A stretch of 64,000 bases of DNA from Xanthomonas fragariae. Its GTDB lineage: Bacteria > Pseudomonadota > Gammaproteobacteria > Xanthomonadales > Xanthomonadaceae. Position numbers and translations under genes: made by a program. A model generated the notes under the pieces. It saw only the letters and a list, made by a program, of their open reading frames with translations. It did not search any database and was not told the origin of the DNA. How positions within the stretch are numbered: the stretch's first letter is position 1; each line of letters opens with the position of its first letter. Below are positions 7,521 through 53,773 of the stretch, piece by piece. Location of the stretch: the NCBI RefSeq assembly GCF_900183975.1, contig NZ_LT853882.1, forward strand, positions 3,837,501 to 3,901,500, given 5' to 3'.

Positions 7521-8143
7521 AAGAACGTCACCGGCCGCGATTTGCCGTTGCGCGCAGGCGCGATGCAGGCCACATACGACAGGGTTGCCTGTGGCTGGCT
7601 GAAGGATCCTTCGCAATTAGATGGCCGGTGCGCACGCTATAGCCCACCGTCTGTTGCTTGCCACGTCACAAGTAGTGCGATGCGCGGCAGGCGCAGCACA
7701 GAAAGACGATGGCATGTCGATTTTCTAAAGCCGCTTTCGTCGGTAGCATGGACGGACACCTCCGCCACCCAGCGTGTGCCTATGTCGACCGTCACGCGAC
7801 ACCGCGTTCTGCATACCAGCCTCGAGCGCATCTATCGCGCATTCCTGGTGCACATCGCGGTTCATCGCACGCGATCTGCATTAATGCGGCGCAGCAATGA
7901 ACGGGGTGTCGTCAGATTGACTACTGCGCTGCACGTCGCGCTAACGCAATGGGCACCATCATGCGTTACCAGCTGTGCAGCCCTAGGGTATCTAGGCAGC
8001 TTAAAGGGTGCAGGCATCCGCAGTTGGACCACTTTCTCGACAGACACCGCGCACTGCGCGGTGTCTTCGTTGTGTGCGCTGATCGGGGCGCGCGCTGTGT
8101 GACGACCAGTGCCATCGCACCAACGCTTCGCGCCATAACCGCG
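7521..8143. other. No recognisable gene (about 620 bp)
   Basis: This stretch follows the IS30 remnant. Its open frames are short, lack coherent composition and match nothing I recognise. It is probably decayed mobile-element or island DNA. Confidence 0.5.
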
Positions 8144-11740: not shown

Positions 11741-11881
11741 AATTGCTAACAAAACGTCGCGAACAGTCGCCAGCTGGGTGCGGGCGGCGCGGAGAAACCA
11801 CAATGTAAGCGCCGTACATGCCGATTCCGGGCAGCGGGCGCGCCCGCATGGCGGTGAGCGCAGTGGTTTTGTTAGCCACTC
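11740..11881. mobile_element. MITE copy 1 (142 bp)
   Basis: The right end is TTTTGTTAGCCACTC and the left end GCTAACAAAACG, inverted copies of each other, with the outer five bases of the left end mutated (AAATT instead of GAGTG). The internal sequence (CGAACAGTCGCCAGCTGGGT, GGCGGTGAGCGCAG) matches the copies at 37465, 41889 and 53640. It is non-coding and must be moved in trans by an IS5-type transposase. No target duplication survives. Confidence 0.8.
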
Positions 11882-26727: not shown

Positions 26728-26982
26728 ATGAGCAGCAAGCGGTATACGGATGAATTCAAGATCGAGGCGGTCCGGCAAGTGACCAATCGTGGTTTCAAGG
26801 TGGCAGAAGTCGCGGAGCGACTAGGTGTCACCACGCACAGCCTTTATGCCTGGCTGCGCAAGTTCGGCAAGCCTGGCGTGGTGCAGCGCGCCGAGGTTCG
26901 GCGGCTGAAGGCAGAGTTGCGTCGAGTGACCGAGGAGCGCGACATCCTAAAAAAGGCCGCCGCGTACTTTGCCAAGGGGTAA
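26728..26982 (+). CDS. IS3-family transposase OrfA
   Basis: The 84-residue helix-turn-helix protein, [20 protein letters not shown] with [20 protein letters not shown], is the DNA-binding half of an IS3 transposase, with a leucine-zipper-like [20 protein letters not shown] tail. GGAGGT precedes ATG 26728. The A6G at 26949-26955 can shift ribosomes by -1 into orfB. The frame is intact. Confidence 0.88.
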
Positions 26983-26999
26983 GGGCAAAGTACGCCTTC

Positions 27000-27854
27000 A
27001 TGCAAGCCCACTGTGGGGAATTCAGGGTGTGTGCGATGTGCCGGGTATTGCGGGTCAACCGGTCGGGCTATTACGCCTGGTTGTGCTCGCCCAACAGTGA
27101 GCGCGCCAAGGAAGATGAGCGCTTGCTTGGACTGATCAAGCACCACTGGCTGGCCAACGGCAGTGTCTATGGGCATCGCAAGATCACCAGGGATCTGCGC
27201 GATCTGGGTGAGCGTTGCAGTCGCCATCGGGTGCATCGGCTGATGCGCACCGAGGGACTGCGTGCCCAGGTGGGCTATGGTCGCAAACCGCGCTTCCATG
27301 GAGGAATGCAGTGCAAGGCGGCGGCCAACCTGCTTGACCGACAGTTCGACGTGACTGAGCCGGACACGACCTGGGCGAGCGATTTCACCTTCATCCGCAC
27401 GCATGAAGGCTGGATGTACCTGGCTGTTGTGATCGATCTGTTTTCCCGGCAGGTTGTCGGCTGGGCGATGCGCGATCGGGCCGACACCGAGTTGGTCGTG
27501 TAGGCCTTGTTGTCTGCGGTGTGGCGGCGCAAACCCAACGCTGGTTGCTTGGTTCATTCGGACCAAGGGTCTGTCTACACCAGCGATGACTGGCGCAGTT
27601 TCCTGGCGTCCCATGGCTTGGTGTGCAGCATGAGTCGGCGTGGCAACTGCCACGACAACGCACCCATGGAGAGCTTCTTCGGACTGCTCAAACGCGAGCG
27701 GATCAGGCGGCGGACCTATTCCACCAAGGACGCCGCTCGCGCCGAGGTATTCGACTACATCGAGATGTTCTACAACCCCAACCGCCGCCACGGTTCAACT
27801 GGCGACCTGTCCCCTGTAGAGTTTGAACGGCGCTACGCGCAACGAGGGTCTTGA
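27000..27854 (+). pseudogene. IS3-family transposase OrfB, nonsense mutated
   Basis: The catalytic half contains the DDE core: [20 protein letters not shown] (first Asp) and [12 protein letters not shown], then VHSDQGSVYTSDDWRSFL (second Asp), and NAPMESFFGLLKRE (Glu). A TAG at 27501-27503 (normally Gln) interrupts the frame between the first and second Asp; otherwise the gene is complete in one frame. A suppressed stop would restore it. Confidence 0.87.
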
Positions 27855-27880: not shown

Positions 27881-29358
27881 CCTACGAAGAAGGCATCAAC
27901 CTCAACAGCGCCCTGCTGTATCTCAACTGGGGCGACCCGCGCACCGTCGAGCGCCTGATGCAAACCGTCAAAGCCTTCGACACCATTATCCAAGTGAATC
28001 CGCAGCGCCACCTGCTATTCGCCAGCAACTGGTTCGGCGGCCGCAAGGTCTACCGCGAACCCAACTGGCAATGGCAAAAGCCCTATTCCTTTCCCATCGT
28101 GCACCCCGCCCTGCTGCTGGGCGGCTATAACGCCGACCCCAACAGCCGCCGCATCGTCACAGGATTAGCCGACGGCTATCTCGCCCACGCCTACACCAAC
28201 GCCAAGGGCAACTGGGCGCTGCCCAACGAGATCAACTGGCAAACCGGCAAAACCCGCGGCGGCGAACTGTTCGAAGGCAGCGGCGGCGCCGACACCTTGC
28301 ACACCTTCTGGGCCGCCTACCGCTGGACCGGCGAGGCGCGTTATCTCAAACCGATTAACTACCGCGTCGCCAACAGCGGCCCCACTGGCCTGGCACTGCT
28401 CAACGAAAACTTTCTCGATGTCATGGGCAAGCGTAGCGCATGGAGCGGCAAGCTCATCGACGCTGTGAACAAACAAGACGGCAGCACCCCGGATTTTCCG
28501 CACCATGTAGCCTGGGAACAGACCGGCAACCTCGATTATCTCGCCACCATTTACCGCGCCGAAACTCGCGAGAAACTGCAAAACGTCTACATGAACACCG
28601 AAGGCCACTGGTGGAGCGACCGTGTCGAATCCCCCACCGTCAACCTGCAACGCGCACGCCTTGGTGGCGTGGCCCTCAAGCGCAATCAAACCTACCCCGG
28701 CCACACCGTGAGCTGGCGCTTCAATGACCCGGAAGCCGCCACCCAAGTCGCCATCGCCATCCCCGCCCCACAGCAAGGGCGTTTCACCGTCATCGCCTAC
28801 AACAGCGCACGCATGACAGGCTGGAATGTGGCGCCGGGCCAATGGCGCATCACCCAAGGCGTGGACCGCGATAACGATGGCAAGATCGACGGTGCAGGCA
28901 AAACGTATGAGGTCGCTTTCGAGAAAAGTGCCTCGCTAGATATCGAATTCCCCGCGGGCCGCACCACCCTTCTGCAACTCGAACGCATTGCCGAAGCTAG
29001 CCCGGTGGAGCTGCGCCCGGATCTGGGTATCGGCTATGGCGATGTGCGCGTGACTGAAGATGCCATTGAAGTGACGGTGCATAGCCTCGGCCATGCCGAT
29101 GCGCCGGCCGGGTTTGTGGTGCTGGAGAATGTGCGTGGGAGGGAGCTGGTGCGGGTGGGGTTTCCGGCACTAGCAGCCCCACGCGATCTGCACCCAATAA
29201 CAATGCAGGTACGGCTGCTGCTATCCAATGCGGCAAACAAGCAAGCTGCGCAATTGCGCTTGATCATCGAGGGCGAGGTGGCAGAGATTACCGAACGCAA
29301 CAATACGCTTCCACTATTGGCGCCAACCAACTTGATAACGCCAAAACAAAGCCGGTAG
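27881..29358 (+). pseudogene. Large extracellular-type protein, 5' end removed by IS3
   Basis: About 490 C-terminal codons survive, starting right at the IS3 right end (YEEGINLNSALLYLNWGDPR). Tryptophan- and aromatic-rich helical sequence (EPNWQWQKPYSFPIVHPALL, GGADTLHTFWAAYRWTGEAR) suggests an alpha/alpha-toroid carbohydrate-active or structural domain. It is followed by beta-rich segments and a C-terminal CARDB-like domain (VELRPDLGIGYGDVRVTEDA, FVVLENVRGRELVRVGFP). I cannot name the family. The lost N-terminal part presumably held the signal peptide and further domains; there is no start codon context, so it is dead. Confidence 0.6.
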
Positions 29359-29375
29359 TCCCGACAAGCCTTAAG

Positions 29376-29420
29376 CCTTTCTCCCGCCTGCGGGAGAAGG
29401 TGCCCGAAGGGTGGATGAGG
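29376..29420. repeat. Dispersed Xanthomonas intergenic palindrome
   Basis: The hairpin CCTTTCTCCCGC/GCGGGAGAAGG is followed by TGCCCGAAGGGTGG, related to the element at 17002. It marks the boundary between the core-like gene remnant to the left and the AT-rich cassettes to the right. Confidence 0.55.
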
Positions 29421-29532
29421 GAAAAGTAGACGGAATTCTCGTCAGTTGCTCAAGCAGATTGACGCAGCCCCCAAACTCAGCGAGGATCATCAATCGCCAT
29501 ATTTATGTTCATATTTTCTCTATTCCAAAGCC

Positions 29533-29955
29533 ATGAACCTGAGCAAATCAGATATAGCAAAACGTCAAATTGAGACAGCCTGTGAGATCTTTCTCAACGA
29601 AGGTGATTTTCTCGCCATCGTGACGCTTGCTGGCGCAGCCGAGGAAATTCTTGGGAATCTCCTGAAGCGTGCCGGTAAAGCAAACAGCATGGACGACATC
29701 GTCGCACTGGATCAGCGGCTTTCTGGCGGGCTTCCTTTTAAAGATGTAATCGCTGAGGTCAACGCTGCCCGTAATGCCCTCAAGCATGCCCGTGATGCAT
29801 CCGAGGACACCGTGCAGGTGCGTCCCGAGGATGCTCATGCAATGCTCTCAAGAGCTATCTCAAATTATGTTTCGCTCACGGAAGACATATCGGAATCCAT
29901 GCTTTTTGTATTTAACAGAATTATTGCCCTGCATCATCCCAGCGTTGCTGGCTAA
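29533..29955 (+). CDS. Integron-cassette protein with HEPN-like RxxxxH motif
   Basis: The 140-residue helical protein is AT-rich in codon usage, unlike its neighbours. MNLSKSDIAKRQIETACEIF starts it; AAEEILGNLLKRAG and VNAARNALKHARDASED follow. RNALKH fits the R-x4-H signature of HEPN-domain ribonucleases, and the AAEEIL helix is also HEPN-like. ATG 29533 is chosen over the upstream in-frame 29446. The TAA stop lies inside the R'' box of an attC site, as is usual for integron gene cassettes. A role as toxin or defence RNase is inferred, not shown. Confidence 0.6.
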   Translation: MNLSKSDIAKRQIETACEIFLNEGDFLAIVTLAGAAEEILGNLLKRAGKANSMDDIVALDQRLSGGLPFKDVIAEVNAARNALKHARDASEDTVQVRPEDAHAMLSRAISNYVSLTEDISESMLFVFNRIIALHHPSVAG

Positions 29956-30009
29956 CCATTTATTCAGGCCAGCTCCGCCTCACGGCGCGACTTAACCAAG
30001 GTATTAGCC
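29950..30009 (+). repeat. Integron attC recombination site 1
   Basis: This 60-bp imperfect palindrome lies directly after the first cassette gene: R'' box GGCTAAC (29950-29956), arm TTCAGGCC, central CCGCC-TCA-CGGCG hairpin, arm GACTTAA, and R' box ATTAGCC (30003-30009). Length and layout match attC2 exactly. The first G of the consensus GTTRRRY is A here, which may weaken cleavage. Confidence 0.75.
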
Positions 30010-30012
30010 ATC

Positions 30013-30639
30013 ATGAAAAATGATCGCCGCGTTTTCATTGACGCCGAAATTCTGGTGCTTGGGCAGCGCCGCTTCATAAAATCGGTAGCTATTCCTCTAT
30101 ATGAGCAGCTGGAAGAAATAGCGCCGAATTTTCCTGAGCCTGATGACAATGACCATTTCGAAAATATAGTTCACTCAAATCTGCAGGCCTTTTTCAATGA
30201 ACTTGGTGGTGTTGCAACGGTTGGGGTTTTCTTAAGCGAGTGGGCAGCAAAAAAGCTGCTGGATGAGATATACGAAGCAACAATTAGACCTCGCTTCAAA
30301 AAAGTCTTTGAGGATTTTTTTAATAGATCAAGCAATGGTAAATTTTATTCCACCGCAATTTCAGCCAAAAGCAGATTAGATAATAACATAATTCTTGTTC
30401 TATCCATTGGCCGCAGCATGGAAGAAATTGAAGCTTGCAACAACCTTGTTTCTACCGCCTTCCAGAAAGGAATAGATCAGATCAAGGATCATCCAGATGG
30501 GACCGTCCGCTCCTATATCATCGAAGATCGCAACATCAGATTCAGCGGGCATTACCAGTCAAGAGTTCAAGCAGTAGATGCGTTGGCAAAGTCCATGTCG
30601 CCTTTTGGAACGATCAAGGCAATGCGACATGATGGCTAA
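30013..30639 (+). CDS. Integron-cassette hypothetical protein, 208 aa
   Basis: This AT-rich gene starts three bases after attC1 and ends with a TAA inside the R'' box of attC2, so ORF plus site form one complete cassette. The product (KNDRRVFIDAEILVLGQRRF, ELGGVATVGVFLSEWAAKKL, NIILVLSIGRSMEEIEACNN) is soluble, alpha/beta-looking and has no signal peptide. The GVATVGVFLSEW part is hydrophobic but short. I do not recognise the family; function unknown. Confidence 0.65.
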   Translation: MKNDRRVFIDAEILVLGQRRFIKSVAIPLYEQLEEIAPNFPEPDDNDHFENIVHSNLQAFFNELGGVATVGVFLSEWAAKKLLDEIYEATIRPRFKKVFEDFFNRSSNGKFYSTAISAKSRLDNNIILVLSIGRSMEEIEACNNLVSTAFQKGIDQIKDHPDGTVRSYIIEDRNIRFSGHYQSRVQAVDALAKSMSPFGTIKAMRHDG

Positions 30640-30693
30640 CAATTCGTTCAAGCTGATGCCGCTTCGCGGCACGGCTTAACTCATACATTAGGG
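30634..30693 (+). repeat. Integron attC recombination site 2
   Basis: This is a textbook 60-bp attC: R'' GGCTAAC (30634-30640), L'' TTCAAGCTG with an extra-helical base against L' CGGCTTAA, terminal hairpin TGCCGC-TTC-GCGGCA, and R' ATTAGGG (30687-30693). The unpaired C in TTCAAG versus CTTAA is the conserved strand-selecting bulge. As in attC1, the R' box begins with A instead of G. Confidence 0.82.
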
Positions 30694-30702
30694 TGCACTC
30701 AG

Positions 30703-31332
30703 ATGATCACGCGATCTATGGAAGAAAAACGTGCCGATTACATCTCATCAATGGGAGAGGAGCTTGGTACTAGCTTCTACGAGCTCTTCCGGAAATTGAT
30801 CGAGCTTCACGTCCTTTGGCAGCAGTACCGCCAGCTGTTTGAAGATGACACTACGATTCACTTGCTCAATCGAACCGCTGGCTTGTTCTTCAAGATCGTG
30901 CAAGACGAGCTTTGGGACAGTGTCTTGCTTGGGATTTCGCGGATGACAGATCCGACAGCAACAGGCAAGAAAAAGAACCTTACAATACAGTCATTGCCTC
31001 CGTTGATTATGGATACAGTGATGCGGGCTGAGGTTCAATCACTTTGCAACAAATCGTTGGAGTCAGCCGAATTTGCCCGCGAGCATCGCAACAAGCGCAT
31101 TGTTCATCAAGATCACGACTACCACAGCAAACGAGATTTGGATCCTCTTAATGGCATAAGCAGGGCTCACGTGGAGCAGATGCTAGCGGCGTTGCAGGCT
31201 GTTCTAAACCGAATCGATTCATATTTCAGAGGCATCACTGTTATGTACGAGAAATTTGTGGATGCGAGCGGGGCTAGGACTCTAGTCAACAAACTGAGAG
31301 AGCTAGAACGGCTACAGGCTGGGGTCACTTGA
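30703..31332 (+). CDS. HEPN/AbiU2-like cassette protein
   Basis: This 209-residue helical protein begins ten bases after attC2. LFFKIVQDELWDSVLLGISR, MTDPTATGKKKNLTIQSLPP and ESAEFAREHRNKRIVHQDHD match the AbiU2-type HEPN pattern, with RNKRIVH as the R-x5-H RNase motif. AbiU2 relatives belong to abortive-infection phage defence. It has lower GC than flanking genes. A degenerate third attC start (CCTAATAATCCATTCAA, 31365-31381) follows its stop. Activity against phage is an inference. Confidence 0.68.
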   Translation: MITRSMEEKRADYISSMGEELGTSFYELFRKLIELHVLWQQYRQLFEDDTTIHLLNRTAGLFFKIVQDELWDSVLLGISRMTDPTATGKKKNLTIQSLPPLIMDTVMRAEVQSLCNKSLESAEFAREHRNKRIVHQDHDYHSKRDLDPLNGISRAHVEQMLAALQAVLNRIDSYFRGITVMYEKFVDASGARTLVNKLRELERLQAGVT

Positions 31333-31364
31333 GTTGTGCCGCAGGCTCGCCGTAGCTGGCGGGA

Positions 31365-31390
31365 CCTAATAATCCATTCAACCTGTGGCG
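31365..31390 (+). repeat. Degenerate or truncated attC end
   Basis: CCTAATAATCCATTCAACC closely resembles the R''-L'' half of attC2 (GCTAACAATTCGTTCAAGC), but no R' half or hairpin follows. It lies about 33 bases after the third cassette gene and may mark the truncated right end of the array. Confidence 0.4.
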
Positions 31391-31500
31391 TGTGTTGATG
31401 CACAAGTGCAGAAACGGATGCCATTCCACCTCTGGTGACGCGGCGCGAGTTGTAGCAACACGAGTTGACATCCCAACCAACCCACAGCAATCTCTACCCC

Positions 31501-31728
31501 AAGGAGCGTAGAAACTCCTCAGACAGCGGTACCCACCTCCGAGATACCGGTGGGTTTTTTGTGCCCGTAGTTTCTTGCGAGCGCAACCGACGCGATGCCT
31601 GCGTCGGGAGGGCGGCTAATACAACACCCTTCGGGGGAATATGCCCGCCGTCTGTCTGCGGTTTCTAACCTCCCGACATCCCGTCGCCGGCCGGCGGCGG
31701 GGCCTGTTCGTCAAGGAGGCCCTTTGCC
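31501..31728 (+). promoter_or_regulatory. Structured leader of the symE-like gene
   Basis: The 228-base leader holds three hairpins: an intrinsic terminator at 31531-31560, CCGACGC/GCGTCGG (31587-31593 with 31601-31607), and a CCC-TTCG-GGG tetraloop (31627-31636). A SD-like AAGGAGG follows at 31714-31720. Such a folded leader ahead of a SymE-type toxin is what type I toxin-antitoxin systems use, with an antisense RNA pairing to the leader. The antisense promoter itself was not identified. Confidence 0.5.
31531..31560 (+). terminator. Intrinsic terminator in the symE leader
   Basis: ACCCACC (31531-31537) pairs with GGTGGGT (31549-31555) and is followed by a run of T to 31560. It lies about 170 bases before the symE-like start codon, so it would stop a short upstream transcript or attenuate the toxin mRNA. 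Confidence 0.7.
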
Positions 31729-32085
31729 ATGCGTCAGCCGCCATCTCGCACCACCACCACCGCCCGCAAGCGGGCACCACGCCAACCACCGCGCGACGCG
31801 GTCTGGCACATCAGAGAGTCGCCGCGCACCCTGATGCTCACGCCCGAGCAAGTGGCCGCCGCCAACGCGGCCGATCTTGCCAAACAACAGCGCGCACTAC
31901 GCCGCCCGCGCCCACCGCAACACTGCACCGTCGGCTATGGATATTACCCCGCCAGCGGCCAACGCATCCCCACGCTGCGACTACGCGGCCGCTGGCTGGA
32001 ACAACTGGGCTTTGCCATCGGCTGCAAACTCCACATCCGCCTGCGCGACGGCGAGCTGGTCGTCAGCGTTGCAAGCGCAGATTGA
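31729..32085 (+). CDS. SymE-like type I toxin
   Basis: The 118-residue protein has a basic, disordered N-terminus (RQPPSRTTTTARKRAPRQPP) and a C-terminal AbrB-like SymE domain: HCTVGYGYYPASGQRIPTLR, then LRGRWLEQLGFAIGCKLHIR and LRDGELVVSV. SymE relatives are SOS-linked toxins (RNA cleavage or nucleoid condensation has been reported for the family) silenced by an antisense RNA. AAGGAGG stands eight bases before ATG. It directly follows the cassette array. Confidence 0.75.
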   Translation: MRQPPSRTTTTARKRAPRQPPRDAVWHIRESPRTLMLTPEQVAAANAADLAKQQRALRRPRPPQHCTVGYGYYPASGQRIPTLRLRGRWLEQLGFAIGCKLHIRLRDGELVVSVASAD

Positions 32086-32830
32086 AAGGGGGAGTCGACA
32101 GCTGCACCGCGCTTGAAACGCAGGCGTGTGCGTCCGGCATATGCCGGACAACGAATGCCCTACGGCCAACGCCAATGGTAAAGCGCGCAATAGCACGTGG
32201 CTTTGATGCCGTTGCGTGCAAAGAACGTTGGCATCGCTCATCCCGCTTGCAACTGCACGGCATGCACGCGCATCACGTTCTCTCGTCGGCTTCAGATGGT
32301 CATCGCATCCACGCCATCTGGCGCTGTCTTGCCGCTGGCGGAAGAGAGCCAGTGCTGATCAGGAACAGTTTTCACCGCATCCGCATCCGCATCCGCATTG
32401 CGATGTGATGTGATGTGATGTGATGTGATGTGATGTGATGCGAGAGCAACCCATACATGCAATGCGTATACACAACGCGTGTGGCTGTTTCGCATTTTTG
32501 AGGCTGCATGACGGTGGCGTGCCGGGTGGCGTTATTGCCCGGCTGCTGCTGTGCCGGGTCTGCACATGCCGGGCTTTGATGGCAGGCACGTTCGGGGATA
32601 CGGCCCGGTGAGCTGCGACACATCGTCTGGCAGGCTGCCGTGGACGCGCCGCCTCTGAGGCTGGTGGCCCCCTGAGGCCGCAATTGGGGCGGTGAAAGCC
32701 GCGTCAGACTGAATGGAATTATTCGAAGCATTTACACACCCAGCGCTCTAGATCGCCCATATACTTCGGATTGCGTCACGCTTCCATAGTGATCTGTGTC
32801 GCTTATTCTAGGTAGACAAAGGATCTGGAT
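32086..32830. other. Gene-free stretch of about 745 bp
   Basis: No convincing coding frame is present. It contains a CATCCG triple (about 32378-32396) running into a GATGT array, and otherwise GC-rich sequence without recognised features. It ends at the promoter region of the TupA-like gene. Confidence 0.5.
32402..32440. repeat. Pentanucleotide microsatellite (GATGT)7.8
   Basis: Thirty-nine bases consist of nearly eight perfect GATGT units, directly preceded by three ATCCGC units. Perfect short repeats like this change length by slippage; here no gene frame is affected. Confidence 0.85.
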
Positions 32831-33907
32831 ATGATTGACGACACGTTAGACATGGTGGTGCTGCCACCGGTTGGGTCGCTGGCCGTCGGCCGGCTGTTGG
32901 CGTCGCTGCCGGCGCCCTCACTTACTTGCGCAACCCGGCAAGCTGCAGGGCTACCTGCCCCGTATGCAGCGCCCGTCAGTGCGCCGACGCTCAAGCGGTT
33001 GCTTCGCAAAGGTGTGCGCCGGCTGGTCAGGACGCTGCCTTGGCGGCACCAGGACCGGATCTATTATTTCAATACGTTTGGCCGGCTTCCGAATCTGTAC
33101 AACCCGACGTGCTTCAATGAGAAAGTGCTGTATCGCAAGTGCGTGCACGGCGATTACCCGGTCTATCAGCGCCTGGCGGACAAGGTCGCGGTGCGGCCGT
33201 ATGTGGCCTCCAGGATCGGCAATGCGCATCTGATTCCGTTGCTGCTGGACAGCAACAACCCGGAAGACCTGCTCAGCCTGCCGCGCTGGCGGCAGACGGT
33301 GATCAAGGCCAACCACGGCGCGAGCATGGTGGAGATTGTGCGCGACGAGCCGGATGCGGTGCAGCGGCGACGCATCATCGAGCGCTGCGGCCAGTGGCTG
33401 CGCCGCGACTTCTCCGAAATGGAACGCGAGATCCATTACCGCAACATCCCGCCGCGCATTCTGGTGGAGCACTACATCGGCGATGCGCAAAACGCGCCGG
33501 TGGACTACAAGTTCCATATGTTCCGCCAGGTGGATGGCAGCTTTCACTATGTGCTGCAAGTAATCTACGGCCGCTTCGACACGCCGGCGTTGTCGATGAC
33601 CTTCTTCGTTGGCAACCTGCACGAGGCTTTCCACCGCATCCGCGACGACGGCCGGCAACCTCCGTGCGCACCGCAGCTACTGGAGCAGGCGCTGGAACTG
33701 AGCAAAGTGCTGGCCAGCGATTTCGATTATGTGCGGGTGGATTGGTATATCCAGAACGGCCAAATCTATTTTGGCGAACTCACCTTCACACCGGGCGCCG
33801 GCCTGGTCACAGGCTTGGGCCGCGGGCTGGACCGGATCATGGGCGATATGTGGGTGCAACGGCGTGCGCCGGTGGAGCCGTGTTTTGCGACGGCGCGCAG
33901 GTCGTAG
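32831..33907 (+). CDS. TupA-like ATP-grasp protein, 3' end captured by IS remnant
   Basis: This 358-residue protein of the ATPgrasp_TupA family is used in cell-surface polysaccharide or peptide ligation. Landmarks are DRIYYFNTFGRLPNLYNPTC, FNEKVLYRKC, VIKANHGASMVEIVRDE, EHYIGDAQNAPVDYKFHMFR, DYVRVDWYIQNGQIYFGELT and FTPGAGLVTG, which cover lysine and acidic ATP/Mg ligands. The last ten codons and the TAG stop appear to come from IS-derived sequence starting about 33895, so the native C-terminus is probably replaced. The catalytic core is complete, so function may persist. Confidence 0.78.
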   Translation: MIDDTLDMVVLPPVGSLAVGRLLASLPAPSLTCATRQAAGLPAPYAAPVSAPTLKRLLRKGVRRLVRTLPWRHQDRIYYFNTFGRLPNLYNPTCFNEKVLYRKCVHGDYPVYQRLADKVAVRPYVASRIGNAHLIPLLLDSNNPEDLLSLPRWRQTVIKANHGASMVEIVRDEPDAVQRRRIIERCGQWLRRDFSEMEREIHYRNIPPRILVEHYIGDAQNAPVDYKFHMFRQVDGSFHYVLQVIYGRFDTPALSMTFFVGNLHEAFHRIRDDGRQPPCAPQLLEQALELSKVLASDFDYVRVDWYIQNGQIYFGELTFTPGAGLVTGLGRGLDRIMGDMWVQRRAPVEPCFATARRS

Positions 33908-36875: not shown

Positions 36876-39800
36876 CGCCGGCGGGCCTGTACGGCTTCAA
36901 GAACCTCTCCATCCAGGCGCTGCCGGATCTGGAGTTACCCACCGTCAACGTCACCTTGTTGCAGCCAGGAGCGGCACCAGCGCAGCTGGAAACCGACGTT
37001 GCGCGCAAGGTGGAAGACTCGATCGCCACGGTCGGCGGCCTGCGGCACCTGCGCACCACCATCAGCGATGGGCAGGTGCAGATCGTGGCCGAATTCCGGC
37101 TGGAAAAATCGCTGTCCGATGCATTGATCGAAACCAAGGACGCGGTCGACCGGGTGCGCTCGTCATTGCTACCGGAACTGCTGCAGCCGGCCATCAGCGC
37201 GGTGACCGAGAACAGCACGCCGATCCTGACCTATGCGGTGACCTCGACAACGCTGGATGAAACCCAGTTGTCCTGGCACGTCGACGATGGTGTAGGTGAA
37301 GGTGCCCGGCGTGGGGCGCGTGCAGCGCCTGGGTGGTGTGCAGCGCGAGATCCGGGTCGAGGTGGATCCGGTGCAGATGACCGCACTCGGCGTTACCACC
37401 GCCGATGTTTCGCGCGCGCTGCAACAGACGCAGCAGTATTCCTCCGGCGGACGCGCGCAACTAAGAGCGGCTAACAAAACGACTATGCTCACCGTCAAAC
37501 GGGCGGGGCCGGTGCCTGGAATCGGCATGTACCACTCGTACACTGCGTTTCCTCTGCACCGTCCGCACCCACCTGGCGACTGCTCGCTACGTTTTGTTAG
37601 CCGCTCTAAGTGGCGCCAAGCAATCGGTGCGCATGGTGGCAGGCGTGCGACAGGCCGCGCAGTTGCCGGGCATGTCGATTGCGCTCGCCACTGGCGGCAG
37701 CGTGCGCCTGGATCAGATCGCGCGCGTGCGCGACGGCTACGCCGACCGCCGGCAGGCCGCGCTTCTCGACGGCAAGCCGGTGATCGGGCTCAGCATCTAT
37801 CGCACCGAGGGCTTCGACGAAACGCAGATCGCCAACGGCGTTGCGCAGGCGCTGCAGCATCTGCAGCAGACCGGCACCCAGCTGCGCATCACTCCGGTCT
37901 CCAGCACCGTGGCCTACACCTTGGAGCAGTTCGAAGGGTCGATGTCCATGCTCTACGAGGGCGCGCTGCTGGCGGTGCTGGTGGTGTGGCTGTTCCTGCG
38001 CGACTGGCGCGCGACCCTGATCGCCGCATCGGCGCTGCCGCTGCCCATCCTGCCCGCGTTCGCGGTGATGTGGTGACTGGACTACTTGCTCAATACGCTC
38101 ACCTTGCTGGCCTTGGCGATGGTGGTCGGCATCCTGGTCGATGACGCTATCGTCGAGATCGAAAACATCGAGCACCATCGGCGTATGGGCAAATCGGCCT
38201 TTCAGGCCACTGCCGATGCCGTCAACGAAATCGCATTGGTGGTCACGGCCACCACCGCAACCCTGGTGGTGGTGTTTGTACCGACCACGTTGATGGGCGG
38301 CATCCCGGGGCTGTTCTTCAAACAGTTCGGGTGGACCGCAGTGATCGCCGTGGTCGCCTCGTTGCTGGTGGCGCGCCTGATCACCCCGATCATGGCCGCC
38401 AGATTTCTCAGTTCACGCTACAGCGATCGTCCGGAACCGGCGACCGGCGCAGTGACTGCCAGCTATTTGCGGATGGTGCAGTGGAGCCTGCGCCACCGCG
38501 CTGCGACGTTGGGCGCTGCCGGCGTGTTTCTACTGTTGTCGCTAGCCTTGTTGCCGTTGCTCTCCAAAGGTCTGGTGCCGCCCAGCGACCGCGGCACCAT
38601 CACCGTCAAGGTCGAGCTTGGGCCGGAAAGCGACATCGACCAGACCCGTCAGGTCACCGAGCGGGTACGCGCCGCGGTTGACCGCATCGACGGCGTCGGT
38701 GCGGTGTTCACCAACATCGGCGGCAATGCAGCCGGGCGTGATGCCCAGGTCGCGGAAGTGCGCAAGGCTGAGATGACTTTGGTGCTGTCCGAACGCAAAA
38801 CACGTGCACCGCAAACGCAGATCGAGCGCGAGGTGCGGCGAGTGTTGGTCAATATCACAGGCGCACGCGCCACCGTGAGTGGCAGCGGGCCGGGCGAGCA
38901 GCTGTCGATGATTCTGACCAGCGATTCGGAAGACGCGCTCAACGCGACCGCCTCTGCATTCGCAGGCGAATTGCGGGCGGCCGGCTTGTCCGGCGTGCGC
39001 ACCCCCGCAAGTCTGGAACGCCCGGAACTGGTTGCGCGGCCGATCGAGAGCCAGACCGCCCGTTATGGAGTGAGCAGCGCCGATATCCGCCAGACCTTGC
39101 GTACCGCGACCAGCGGCGATTTCGAACCGCAACTTGCCAAGCTCAATCTGGACAACCGGCAGATCAACATCCGCGTGCAGGTGCCTGACCGGGTCAGTGC
39201 CGATCTGGATGCGTTGTCTAATCTACGCGTGCAATCACGCGATGGCCTGATGCCTTTGTCCAGTGTCGCGGTATTGGCAATGGAAAGCGGCCCCACCCAG
39301 ATCGACCGCGACGATCGCCAACGCTACGTCACGGTGAGCGCCGACCTGAGCGACATGCCGTTGAGCAAGGCGCTGGCGCTGGCCAACACGCGCGCCTCCA
39401 TCCAGCACCTGCCCTCGAATGTGTCGCTGATCCAGTCCGGCGATGCCGAAGTGGCGGCGGATTTGTCGTCGGGATTACTGCTGGCAATCGTGATCGCCAG
39501 CGTGTGCATGCTGTGCGTGCTGATTCTGCTGTTCAGCGACTTCTTCCAGCCGCTGACGATCCTGTCGGCCATTCCGCTTTCGCTCGGCGGCGCGTTTGTG
39601 GCGCTATTGCTCTTCGGCAGCGAGCTCGATGTGCCGTCGATGATCGGCCTGGTGATGCTGATGGGCATCGTTACCAAAAACTCGATTCTCTTGGTGGAAT
39701 ACGCCGTGATTGCGATCCGCGATGGGGCAGCGTCCGTAGAAGCCGCCTTAATCGATGCATACCACAAGCGCGCCCGCCCGATCGTGATGACCACCATGGC

Positions 39801-41888: not shown

Positions 41889-42031
41889 GAGTGGCTAACC
41901 AACGTAGCGAACAGTCGCCAAGTGGGTGCGGACGGCGCGGAGGAACCGCAGTGTTCGCGTGGTACATGCGCCGATTCCAAGCACCGGACGCGCCCGCCTG
42001 GCGGTGAGCGCAGCAGTTTTGTTACCTACTC
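41889..42031 (+). mobile_element. MITE copy 3 (143 bp)
   Basis: The left end GAGTGGCTAACCAACG and right end TTTTGTTACCTACTC are partly decayed inverted repeats; CAA/TAA flanks suggest an eroded TAA duplication. The interior (CGAACAGTCGCCAAGTGGGT, GGCGGTGAGCGCAGCAG) closely matches copy 1. It is the most mutated at its ends of the four. Confidence 0.85.
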
Positions 42032-53640: not shown

Positions 53641-53773
53641 GAGGGGGCTAACAAAACGTAGCGAGCAGTCGTCAGGTGGGCGCAGAGGAACCGGAGTGTA
53701 CGCGTGGTACGTGAGGATTCCGAGCACCGGCCGCGCCCGCCTGGCGGCGGCGCAGTAGTTTTGTTAGCCGCTC
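53640..53773 (+). mobile_element. MITE copy 4 (134 bp)
   Basis: The left end GGAGGGGGCTAACAAAACG (slightly mutated) and right end GTTTTGTTAGCCGCTC are flanked by a TTA target duplication (53637-53639 and 53774-53776). The interior matches the other three copies but has a deletion of about nine bases (GGTGGGCGCAGAGG region). It has cut off the 3' end of the toxin-like gene on the minus strand. Confidence 0.9.

What the first reader, a model, noticed from the sequence alone, without database searches (positions are those of the whole stretch)
29446..31390. Integron gene cassettes with two 60-bp attC sites but no integrase in the window
Three AT-rich genes are separated by sequences that are each exactly 60 bp, begin GGCTAAC (containing the stop codon of the gene before), contain a hairpin with an extra-helical base (TTCAAGC against GCTTAA in attC2) and end ATTAGNN just before the next start codon. 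This is the attC design of integron cassettes. No tyrosine recombinase of the IntI type is visible in 64 kb, so it is a CALIN-type array (attC cluster lacking an integrase) or a displaced part of the Xanthomonas chromosomal integron. Both R' boxes start with A instead of the cleaved G, which may have frozen the array.
Basis: partly seen in the sequence, partly recalled or inferred. Interest (0 to 1): 0.85.

Follow-up and report, generated by a model that had tools for sequence, protein, structure and literature searches.

The report
Frozen integron cassette remnant, strawberry pathogen
Three foreign genes in a strawberry pathogen sit in the worn-out remains of a gene-capture array that has lost its recombinase; this kind of remnant is known in the genus, but a recent survey had reported none in this species.

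Summary
Two 60-bp attC sites (29950-30009, 30634-30693) separate three genes. A covariance model built only from other Xanthomonas genomes scores them 36.3 and 71.7 bits, its only two hits at E up to 1 in the 4.3-Mb genome. No IntI was found there: the relatives are XerC and XerD. The genome is Xanthomonas fragariae, judged from its plasmids.

It is a CALIN at a known position, between lamG and sRNA-Xcc1/symE; 17 of 19 lamG regions fetched from relatives hold attC sites. So it is an old array site, not a fragment moved from the ilvD integron. A 2025 survey reported no attC in six X. fragariae genomes.

The array looks dead: both R' boxes have A for the crossover G (A in 3 of 138 comparison sites), attC1's stem is broken, attC3 is cut. 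Genes 1 and 3 are HEPN-like; relatives of gene 3 (AbiU2) lie beside attC in three of eight loci.

New lead: a conserved promoter-like element follows lamG in relatives and here stands directly before gene 1.

The parts
27883..29358 (+). 3' fragment of the lamG-type gene; in sister genome G019 the gene is 1266 aa with a Laminin_G_3 domain; here the 5' part is missing at this place, next to an IS3-type transposase
29459..29489 (+). conserved promoter-like element TTGAC-N14-CRGCGAGGATCA (17 bp between TTGACG and GAGGAT) at the array head
   Evidence: promoter function inferred only
29492..30003 (+). cassette 1 (start approximate), its 5' end lost: no TTAGCC-like start seen; homology with G019 ends between 29489 and 29497
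29533..29955 (+). gene 1, 140 aa, HEPN-like: motif RNALKH; N and H invariant and R nearly invariant in 36 aligned sequences
   Evidence: HEPN_Apea weakly in 9 of 36; all-helical model, pLDDT 92.6
29950..30009 (+). attC1, degraded: 36.3 bits, 5 of 21 model pairs broken, R' ATTAGCC
30004..30687 (+). cassette 2 (684 bp); its start TTAGCC is complementary to GGCTAA of its own R'' at 30634, as in a complete cassette
30013..30639 (+). gene 2, 208 aa, function unknown; the only homologues found are in Xanthomonas
   Evidence: model pLDDT 37, uninformative
30634..30693 (+). attC2: 71.7 bits, 3 of 21 model pairs broken, inner stem intact, R' ATTAGGG
30688..31384 (+). cassette 3, 3' end cut; shared with sister genome G019 (30682-31377, 96%)
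30703..31332 (+). gene 3, 209 aa, AbiU2-type HEPN protein (PF18734)
   Evidence: relatives beside attC in X. cissicola L154 and Pseudoxanthomonas L152 (both sides) and X. dyei L153 (5' side)
31364..31384 (+). attC3, left half only (R'', spacer, L''), 31 bases behind the stop of gene 3
31603..31685 (+). sRNA-Xcc1 (RF02221), 77.1 bits
31729..32085 (+). symE gene (67.8% GC, unlike the three cassette genes)

Best explanation
A relic CALIN in X. fragariae at the old lamG cassette site of Xanthomonas. Cassettes were once inserted and exchanged there by an IntI acting in trans or since lost. In this lineage no IntI is left; attC1 and attC2 carry A for the crossover G, attC1's stem is degraded and attC3 is cut, so the cassettes are probably no longer mobile. 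Shown: attC identity, no IntI found, attC at the same locus in most relatives examined, site decay, a cassette set different from the sister genome's. Inferred: that the sites are inactive, that a deletion joined gene 1 to the conserved promoter-like element behind lamG, and that genes 1-3 are now transcribed from it as an ordinary operon in which two of three genes are HEPN-type (RNase or defence-like).
For: attC scores and genome-wide uniqueness; no IntI, XerC/XerD only, while 16 of 35 genus genomes have a match over the IntI cut-off; attC in 17 of 19 lamG regions fetched from relatives; sRNA-Xcc1 in 11 of 12 of these scanned; relatives of gene 3 beside attC in 3 of 8 loci; crossover A in 2 of 2 here against 3 of 138; attC1 folds no better than shuffles, z -0.36, attC2 z -2.75; third half-site.
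Against: Inactivity of the sites was not measured; attC2 is structurally good, and 3 of 138 comparison sites, one of them beside a full-length IntI, also have A. The promoter-like element was not reported by a sigma-70 consensus scan; GAGGAT matches TATAAT at 3 of 6. Two of 19 lamG regions (L162, L167) had no attC hit, and in L165 the hits lie beyond sRNA-Xcc1.
Confidence: 0.88

Rival explanations
1. A displaced piece of the ilvD chromosomal integron, moved to this place by IS-mediated rearrangement in this strain.
For: IS3-type transposase remnants beside lamG; no attC found at ilvD here.
Against: The lamG 3' flank matches the sister genome up to 29489-29497 and resembles the flanks of other relatives, and 17 of 19 relatives' lamG regions have attC.
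Confidence: 0.06
2. The array is still mobilisable: attC2 (perhaps attC1) can be used by an IntI supplied in trans, for example from another Xanthomonas or a plasmid.
For: attC2 keeps its stem, extra-helical base and R''/L'' boxes; the sister genome has different cassettes before the same AbiU2 cassette.
Against: Crossover base A in both sites; IntI1 is reported to need GNT (PMC10127599, passages). The junction shared with G019 extends 6 bases left of the crossover, so the different neighbours need not be IntI products.
Confidence: 0.1
3. Not attC: chance inverted repeats between three co-transcribed genes.
For: attC1 alone is weak as a fold.
Against: E 1.4e-11 and 9.5e-4 genome-wide with an independent model; the three best half-site matches of the window fall at the three gene ends.
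Confidence: 0.005

Closest known systems
CALINs next to lamG and/or secF in Xanthomonas (Colombi et al. 2025, PMC12444791; outline, text parts 2 and 3 of 8 and found passages seen)
   Same: Same locus beside lamG, attC sites without intI, mostly unknown genes, symE/sRNA-Xcc1 close by
   Different: That survey names lamG/secF CALINs for five species and reports neither intI nor attC for X. fragariae (n=6); it describes symE and sRNA-Xcc1 as opposite to the cassettes, here they run in the same direction
Xanthomonas chromosomal integron at ilvD (IntI plus cassette array)
   Same: Same attC family: attC2 aligns over its length with sites of relatives
   Different: No intI found, another locus, crossover G replaced by A
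AbiU2 / HEPN families and the 'integron cassette HEPN' group (HEPN superfamily analysis 2013, PMC3710099; passages seen)
   Same: Gene 3 is AbiU2 by Pfam; gene 1 has an RNxxxH-type HEPN motif; HEPN genes in cassettes were already proposed there as dormancy RNases
   Different: Gene 1 itself matches no Pfam or NCBIfam family; no activity shown

Membership tests
CALIN | at least two attC sites close together | tested here: met
   attC2 71.7 bits, attC1 36.3 bits, 684 bp apart, plus a half-site; IntegronFinder itself not run
CALIN | no integron integrase nearby | tested here: met
   whole genome: best TIGR02249 stretch 77.4 bits; the two ORFs hit score 131.6 and 107 bits as whole proteins against a cut-off of 265 and are XerC and XerD over their own cut-offs
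attC site | imperfect inverted repeat with R''/L'' and L'/R' boxes and an extra-helical base | tested here: met
   attC2: 18 of 21 model pairs kept; attC1: 16 of 21
attC site | bottom strand folds better than chance | tested here: inconclusive
   attC2 z -2.75, attC1 z -0.36
functional attC site | GTT crossover triplet in R' | tested here: not met
   ATT in both
complete (mobile or chromosomal) integron | intI, attI and Pc | tested here: not met
   no intI found in the genome; attI not searched for
AbiU2 HEPN | PF18734 match with the HEPN Rx4-6H motif | tested here: met
   56.9 bits, cut-off 26.8; RNKRIVH seen in the translation
HEPN (gene 1) | all-helical fold with Rx4-6H motif | tested here: inconclusive
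   motif conserved in 36 sequences, helical model, weak HEPN_Apea in 9 of 36, best E 0.0017; no match of the window's own protein; fold comparison not obtained
Pc-like promoter | transcription start driving the cassettes | not testable with these tools
   conserved sequence only; consensus scan negative

The most novel reading that the evidence does not exclude
The lamG cassette site of Xanthomonas is an expression platform independent of intI: a promoter core (TTGAC-N14-CGGCGAGGATCA) is kept at fixed spacing just behind lamG even where the surrounding flank is of an unrelated class (consensus of class I against class II: 4-5 of 20 identical in each upstream block, 5 of 14 in the spacer, 9 of 20 just downstream, then 4 of 20 and 3 of 30, but 5 of 5 and 12 of 12 in the core; rows were picked with the pattern). 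Cassettes landing or sliding there are expressed without an integrase. In X. fragariae a deletion then welded a HEPN gene straight onto this promoter while the attC sites died, turning a mobile array into a fixed operon.
Probability: 0.3. Interest if true: 0.6.

Novelty: new member of a known kind. Interest (0 to 1): 0.36.

Why it matters
It corrects a current picture in which X. fragariae shows no integron trace at all, and suggests how such relics can escape a rule that demands two recognisable attC sites. It offers an example of how an array decays once the integrase is gone: lost crossover bases, a broken stem, a half-site. The promoter-like element behind lamG, if real, would help explain how integrase-less arrays stay expressed and why they persist at this locus across species.

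Tried and rejected
Rejected: displaced ilvD fragment (lamG flank shared with relatives); chance repeats (independent covariance model); an intact third attC (only the left half remains). Led nowhere: a sigma-70 consensus scan reported one promoter-like site, at 30143, none at the element; gene 2 by structure (3 aligned sequences, pLDDT 37); gene 1 against PDB sequences (one chance-level hit, E 0.086); PADLOC (no family for genes 1-3 or symE at E up to 1). The promoter-like motif was not found by regular expression in the 12 array loci L096-L107, so it is probably not simply the ilvD integron's attI/Pc. Genes 1 and 2 were searched in 35 genus genomes: gene 1 in the own genome and distantly (40%) in one other, gene 2 in the own genome only, so within these 35 the three genes are not seen together elsewhere, with or without attC. 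Not established: why two cassettes share the G-to-A change. Selection for freezing, simple C-to-T decay and inheritance were weighed; only for attC2 is there evidence that the A is older than the split from G019. In the paper searches made (listings) and passages seen I met no report of a promoter behind lamG; that is a limited search.

Full report
What was checked. The stretch 28500-32500 was read. The units 29950-30009 and 30634-30693 are each 60 bp, begin GGCTAAC with the stop codon of the gene before, and end ATTAGCC and ATTAGGG. The genes are AT-rich (49.6, 43.1, 48.6% GC; window 62.4%).

Are they attC sites? A search of 35 Xanthomonas genomes with 29940-30710 gave matches in 32 of 35 (own included); in the part of the list shown, all matches in other genomes lie within query positions 675-770, that is on attC2 and its edges, many are spaced like cassette arrays and several lie near IntI genes. 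In 12 fetched array regions (L102 gave no site) nhmmer gave 304 matches, 156 after removing overlaps, 137 of them full-length. Thirty-eight diverse sites were aligned (39 selected, one with a long insert left out). The attC structure written on that alignment is supported: 87.5% of cells paired, 11 pairs with changes on both sides, neither reached by any of 500 shuffles, and 26.5-40.7% paired when slid. The covariance model R1, which holds no window sequence, finds attC2 at 71.7 bits and attC1 at 36.3 bits, and lists nothing else in the genome at E up to 1 (150 of 1,817 first-look candidates scored). With filters off on 28500-33000 the only other hits are the reverse strands of the same two sites (9.1 and 7.9 bits). 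On the alignment to the model 3 of 21 pairs are broken in attC2 and 5 of 21 in attC1, the pair at the crossover base in both. Folded alone, the bottom strand of attC2 is better than shuffles (z -2.75) and that of attC1 is not (z -0.36).

A third site. Scanning both strands of the window for the left half of the consensus, the three best matches (3, 4 and 5 mismatches of 21) are 30634, 29950 and 31364. The last begins 31 bases behind the stop of gene 3. In 200 first-order shuffles of the local 4.5 kb (plus strand) a match with 5 or fewer mismatches came up in 2. The covariance model does not report it. The sister genome has a similar half-site at the same place, diverging earlier. Of 8 loci with relatives of gene 3, 3 have attC beside the gene: X. 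cissicola and Pseudoxanthomonas on both sides (the upstream one in Pseudoxanthomonas weak, E 0.016), X. dyei on the 5' side only; the Pseudomonas, Aliidiomarina and Halomonadaceae loci have none at E up to 0.1.

Where it is. The first 12 kb of both plasmid contigs are 100% identical to X. fragariae plasmids, and the sister genome's gene 3 product is the X. fragariae protein P0001. Upstream lies the end of the lamG gene, whose 1266-aa form in the sister has a Laminin_G_3 domain. Downstream lie sRNA-Xcc1 and symE. Of 19 lamG regions fetched (lamG was matched in 34 of 35 genomes), 17 contain attC at E up to 0.01; L162 and L167 do not, and in L165 the hits lie beyond sRNA-Xcc1. sRNA-Xcc1 was found in 11 of the 12 regions scanned. 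Colombi et al. 2025 (PMC12444791; outline, parts 2 and 3 of 8 and found passages seen) describe CALINs at lamG and/or secF in five species, call symE/sRNA-Xcc1 the most widespread cassette, and state that X. albilineans and X. fragariae (n=6 each) had neither intI nor attC, with a CALIN threshold of two attC. They also note that integrons were detected by PCR in some X. fragariae isolates in an earlier study (not seen by me).

No integrase. The best TIGR02249 stretch in this genome has 77.4 bits. The two ORFs hit score 131.6 and 107 bits as whole proteins against a cut-off of 265, and are XerC and XerD over their own cut-offs. In the genus 16 of 35 genomes have a match over the cut-off. The ilvD region of this genome (L176, L177) gave no attC.

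Decay of the sites. With one HMM and one rule the crossover base was A in 1 of 79 sites in six arrays beside full-length IntI genes, 2 of 59 in five other arrays (1 more unclear), 5 of 45 in relatives' lamG regions, and 3 of 3 in this lineage (two in the window, one lone attC in the sister, L179) (partial sites left out: 12, 5, 25). An earlier count on the same arrays gave A in 3 of 136 readable sites, and a cruder count on covariance-model hits gave A in 14 of 58, 11 of 55 without the lineage's three, some of them weak sites where the box may be misplaced. Window 2 of 2 against 3 of 138: p 0.001; lamG 5 of 45 against 3 of 138: p 0.02. Sites are related to each other, so these p values are only a guide. 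IntI1 is described as needing only GNT (PMC10127599, passages), and the G/C of GTT/AAC is said never to be found in the L box of attI, which prevents exchange there (PMC2727003, passages). The A before cassette 3 is also present in the sister, where the middle of that site is occupied by another palindrome, so it probably predates their split.

The head of the array. Homology to the sister ends between 29489 and 29497. Just before it stands TTGACGCAGCCCCCAAACTCAGCGAGGATCA (29459-29489). A pattern of its core with up to 2 mismatches hit 5-14 times per genome in 35 genomes, most of the 2-mismatch hits far from lamG; the reversed control gave 0-2 per strand. All 11 exact matches in the listed part of the output (genomes up to G018) lie 104-166 bases behind the lamG match (coordinates). 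Of the 19 lamG regions, 18 have it at 0 or 1 mismatch near lamG and one (L159) at 3. Flanks fall into two classes (class II: L159, L168, L171, L174). Their consensus sequences agree in 4, 4 and 5 of 20 upstream, 5 of 14 in the spacer, 9 of 20 just downstream and 4 of 20 and 3 of 30 beyond, but in 5 of 5 and 12 of 12 in the two core blocks. Rows were chosen by the pattern, and the L159 row is a copy elsewhere in that locus, so the fixed position behind lamG is the independent evidence. The 17-bp spacing and the A and T of GAGGAT suggest a promoter; the consensus scan did not report it.

The genes. Gene 1 has 264 homologues at E up to 1e-3 (120 listed), gene 2 three including its own cluster, gene 3 241 (120 listed). 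In 36 aligned sequences of the gene 1 family the motif RNxxKH is invariant or nearly so; 9 of 36 weakly match HEPN_Apea, the window's own protein none; the model is all-helical with pLDDT 92.6. Gene 3 is AbiU2, a HEPN family; HEPN domains in integron cassettes were proposed in 2013 to act as stress RNases (PMC3710099, passages). Cassette 2 looks complete: its start TTAGCC complements its own R''. Cassette 1 lacks such a start and cassette 3 lacks its end.

Selection. Between the window and the sister, gene 3 has 2 synonymous and 19 non-synonymous changes (dN/dS 2.9), while symE, lamG end and TupA-like have 0.20, 0.19 and 0.27. The contrast with the pooled neighbours is strong (p 2e-5) but a neutral split is not excluded (p 0.2). 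So gene 3 is either relaxed or diversifying, and its low dS hints at a more recent common copy than the flanks have.

Verdict. A genuine, probably dead CALIN at a known Xanthomonas position, in a species for which the survey found none. Ordinary in kind; the promoter-like element behind lamG is the part worth following.

Noticed in passing
window 30703-31332 and L065 4783-5412: Gene 3 (AbiU2) has 2 synonymous against 19 non-synonymous changes between two close genomes, while three neighbouring genes have dN/dS of 0.19-0.27; dS is also far lower than in the neighbours.
   Followed up: partly
L157 9325, G002:C13:48220, G016:C10:164807: Further copies (1-2 mismatches) of the lamG promoter-like element; these lie 40 to about 440 bases behind the symE match, as if a second array head.
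   Followed up: no
L179 4577-4638: The sister genome has a lone attC (63.2 bits, also A at the crossover) in a gap between two open reading frames that look like a lipocalin and a WYL-type regulator (by eye), with no cassette gene.
   Followed up: partly
L065 4437-4527 and 4701-4773: Two cassette ends in the sister genome contain palindromes in the place of the attC middle; they resemble REP-like repeats (recalled, not tested).
   Followed up: no
window 26730-27854: IS3-type transposase beside the truncated lamG; its second reading frame is interrupted by a TAG at 27501-27503.
   Followed up: no
window 7968-8070, 11744-11819, 37527-37602, 41893-41967, 53646-53712: Known Xanthomonas sRNA families: sX2 once and sX9 four times in 64 kb.
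   Followed up: no
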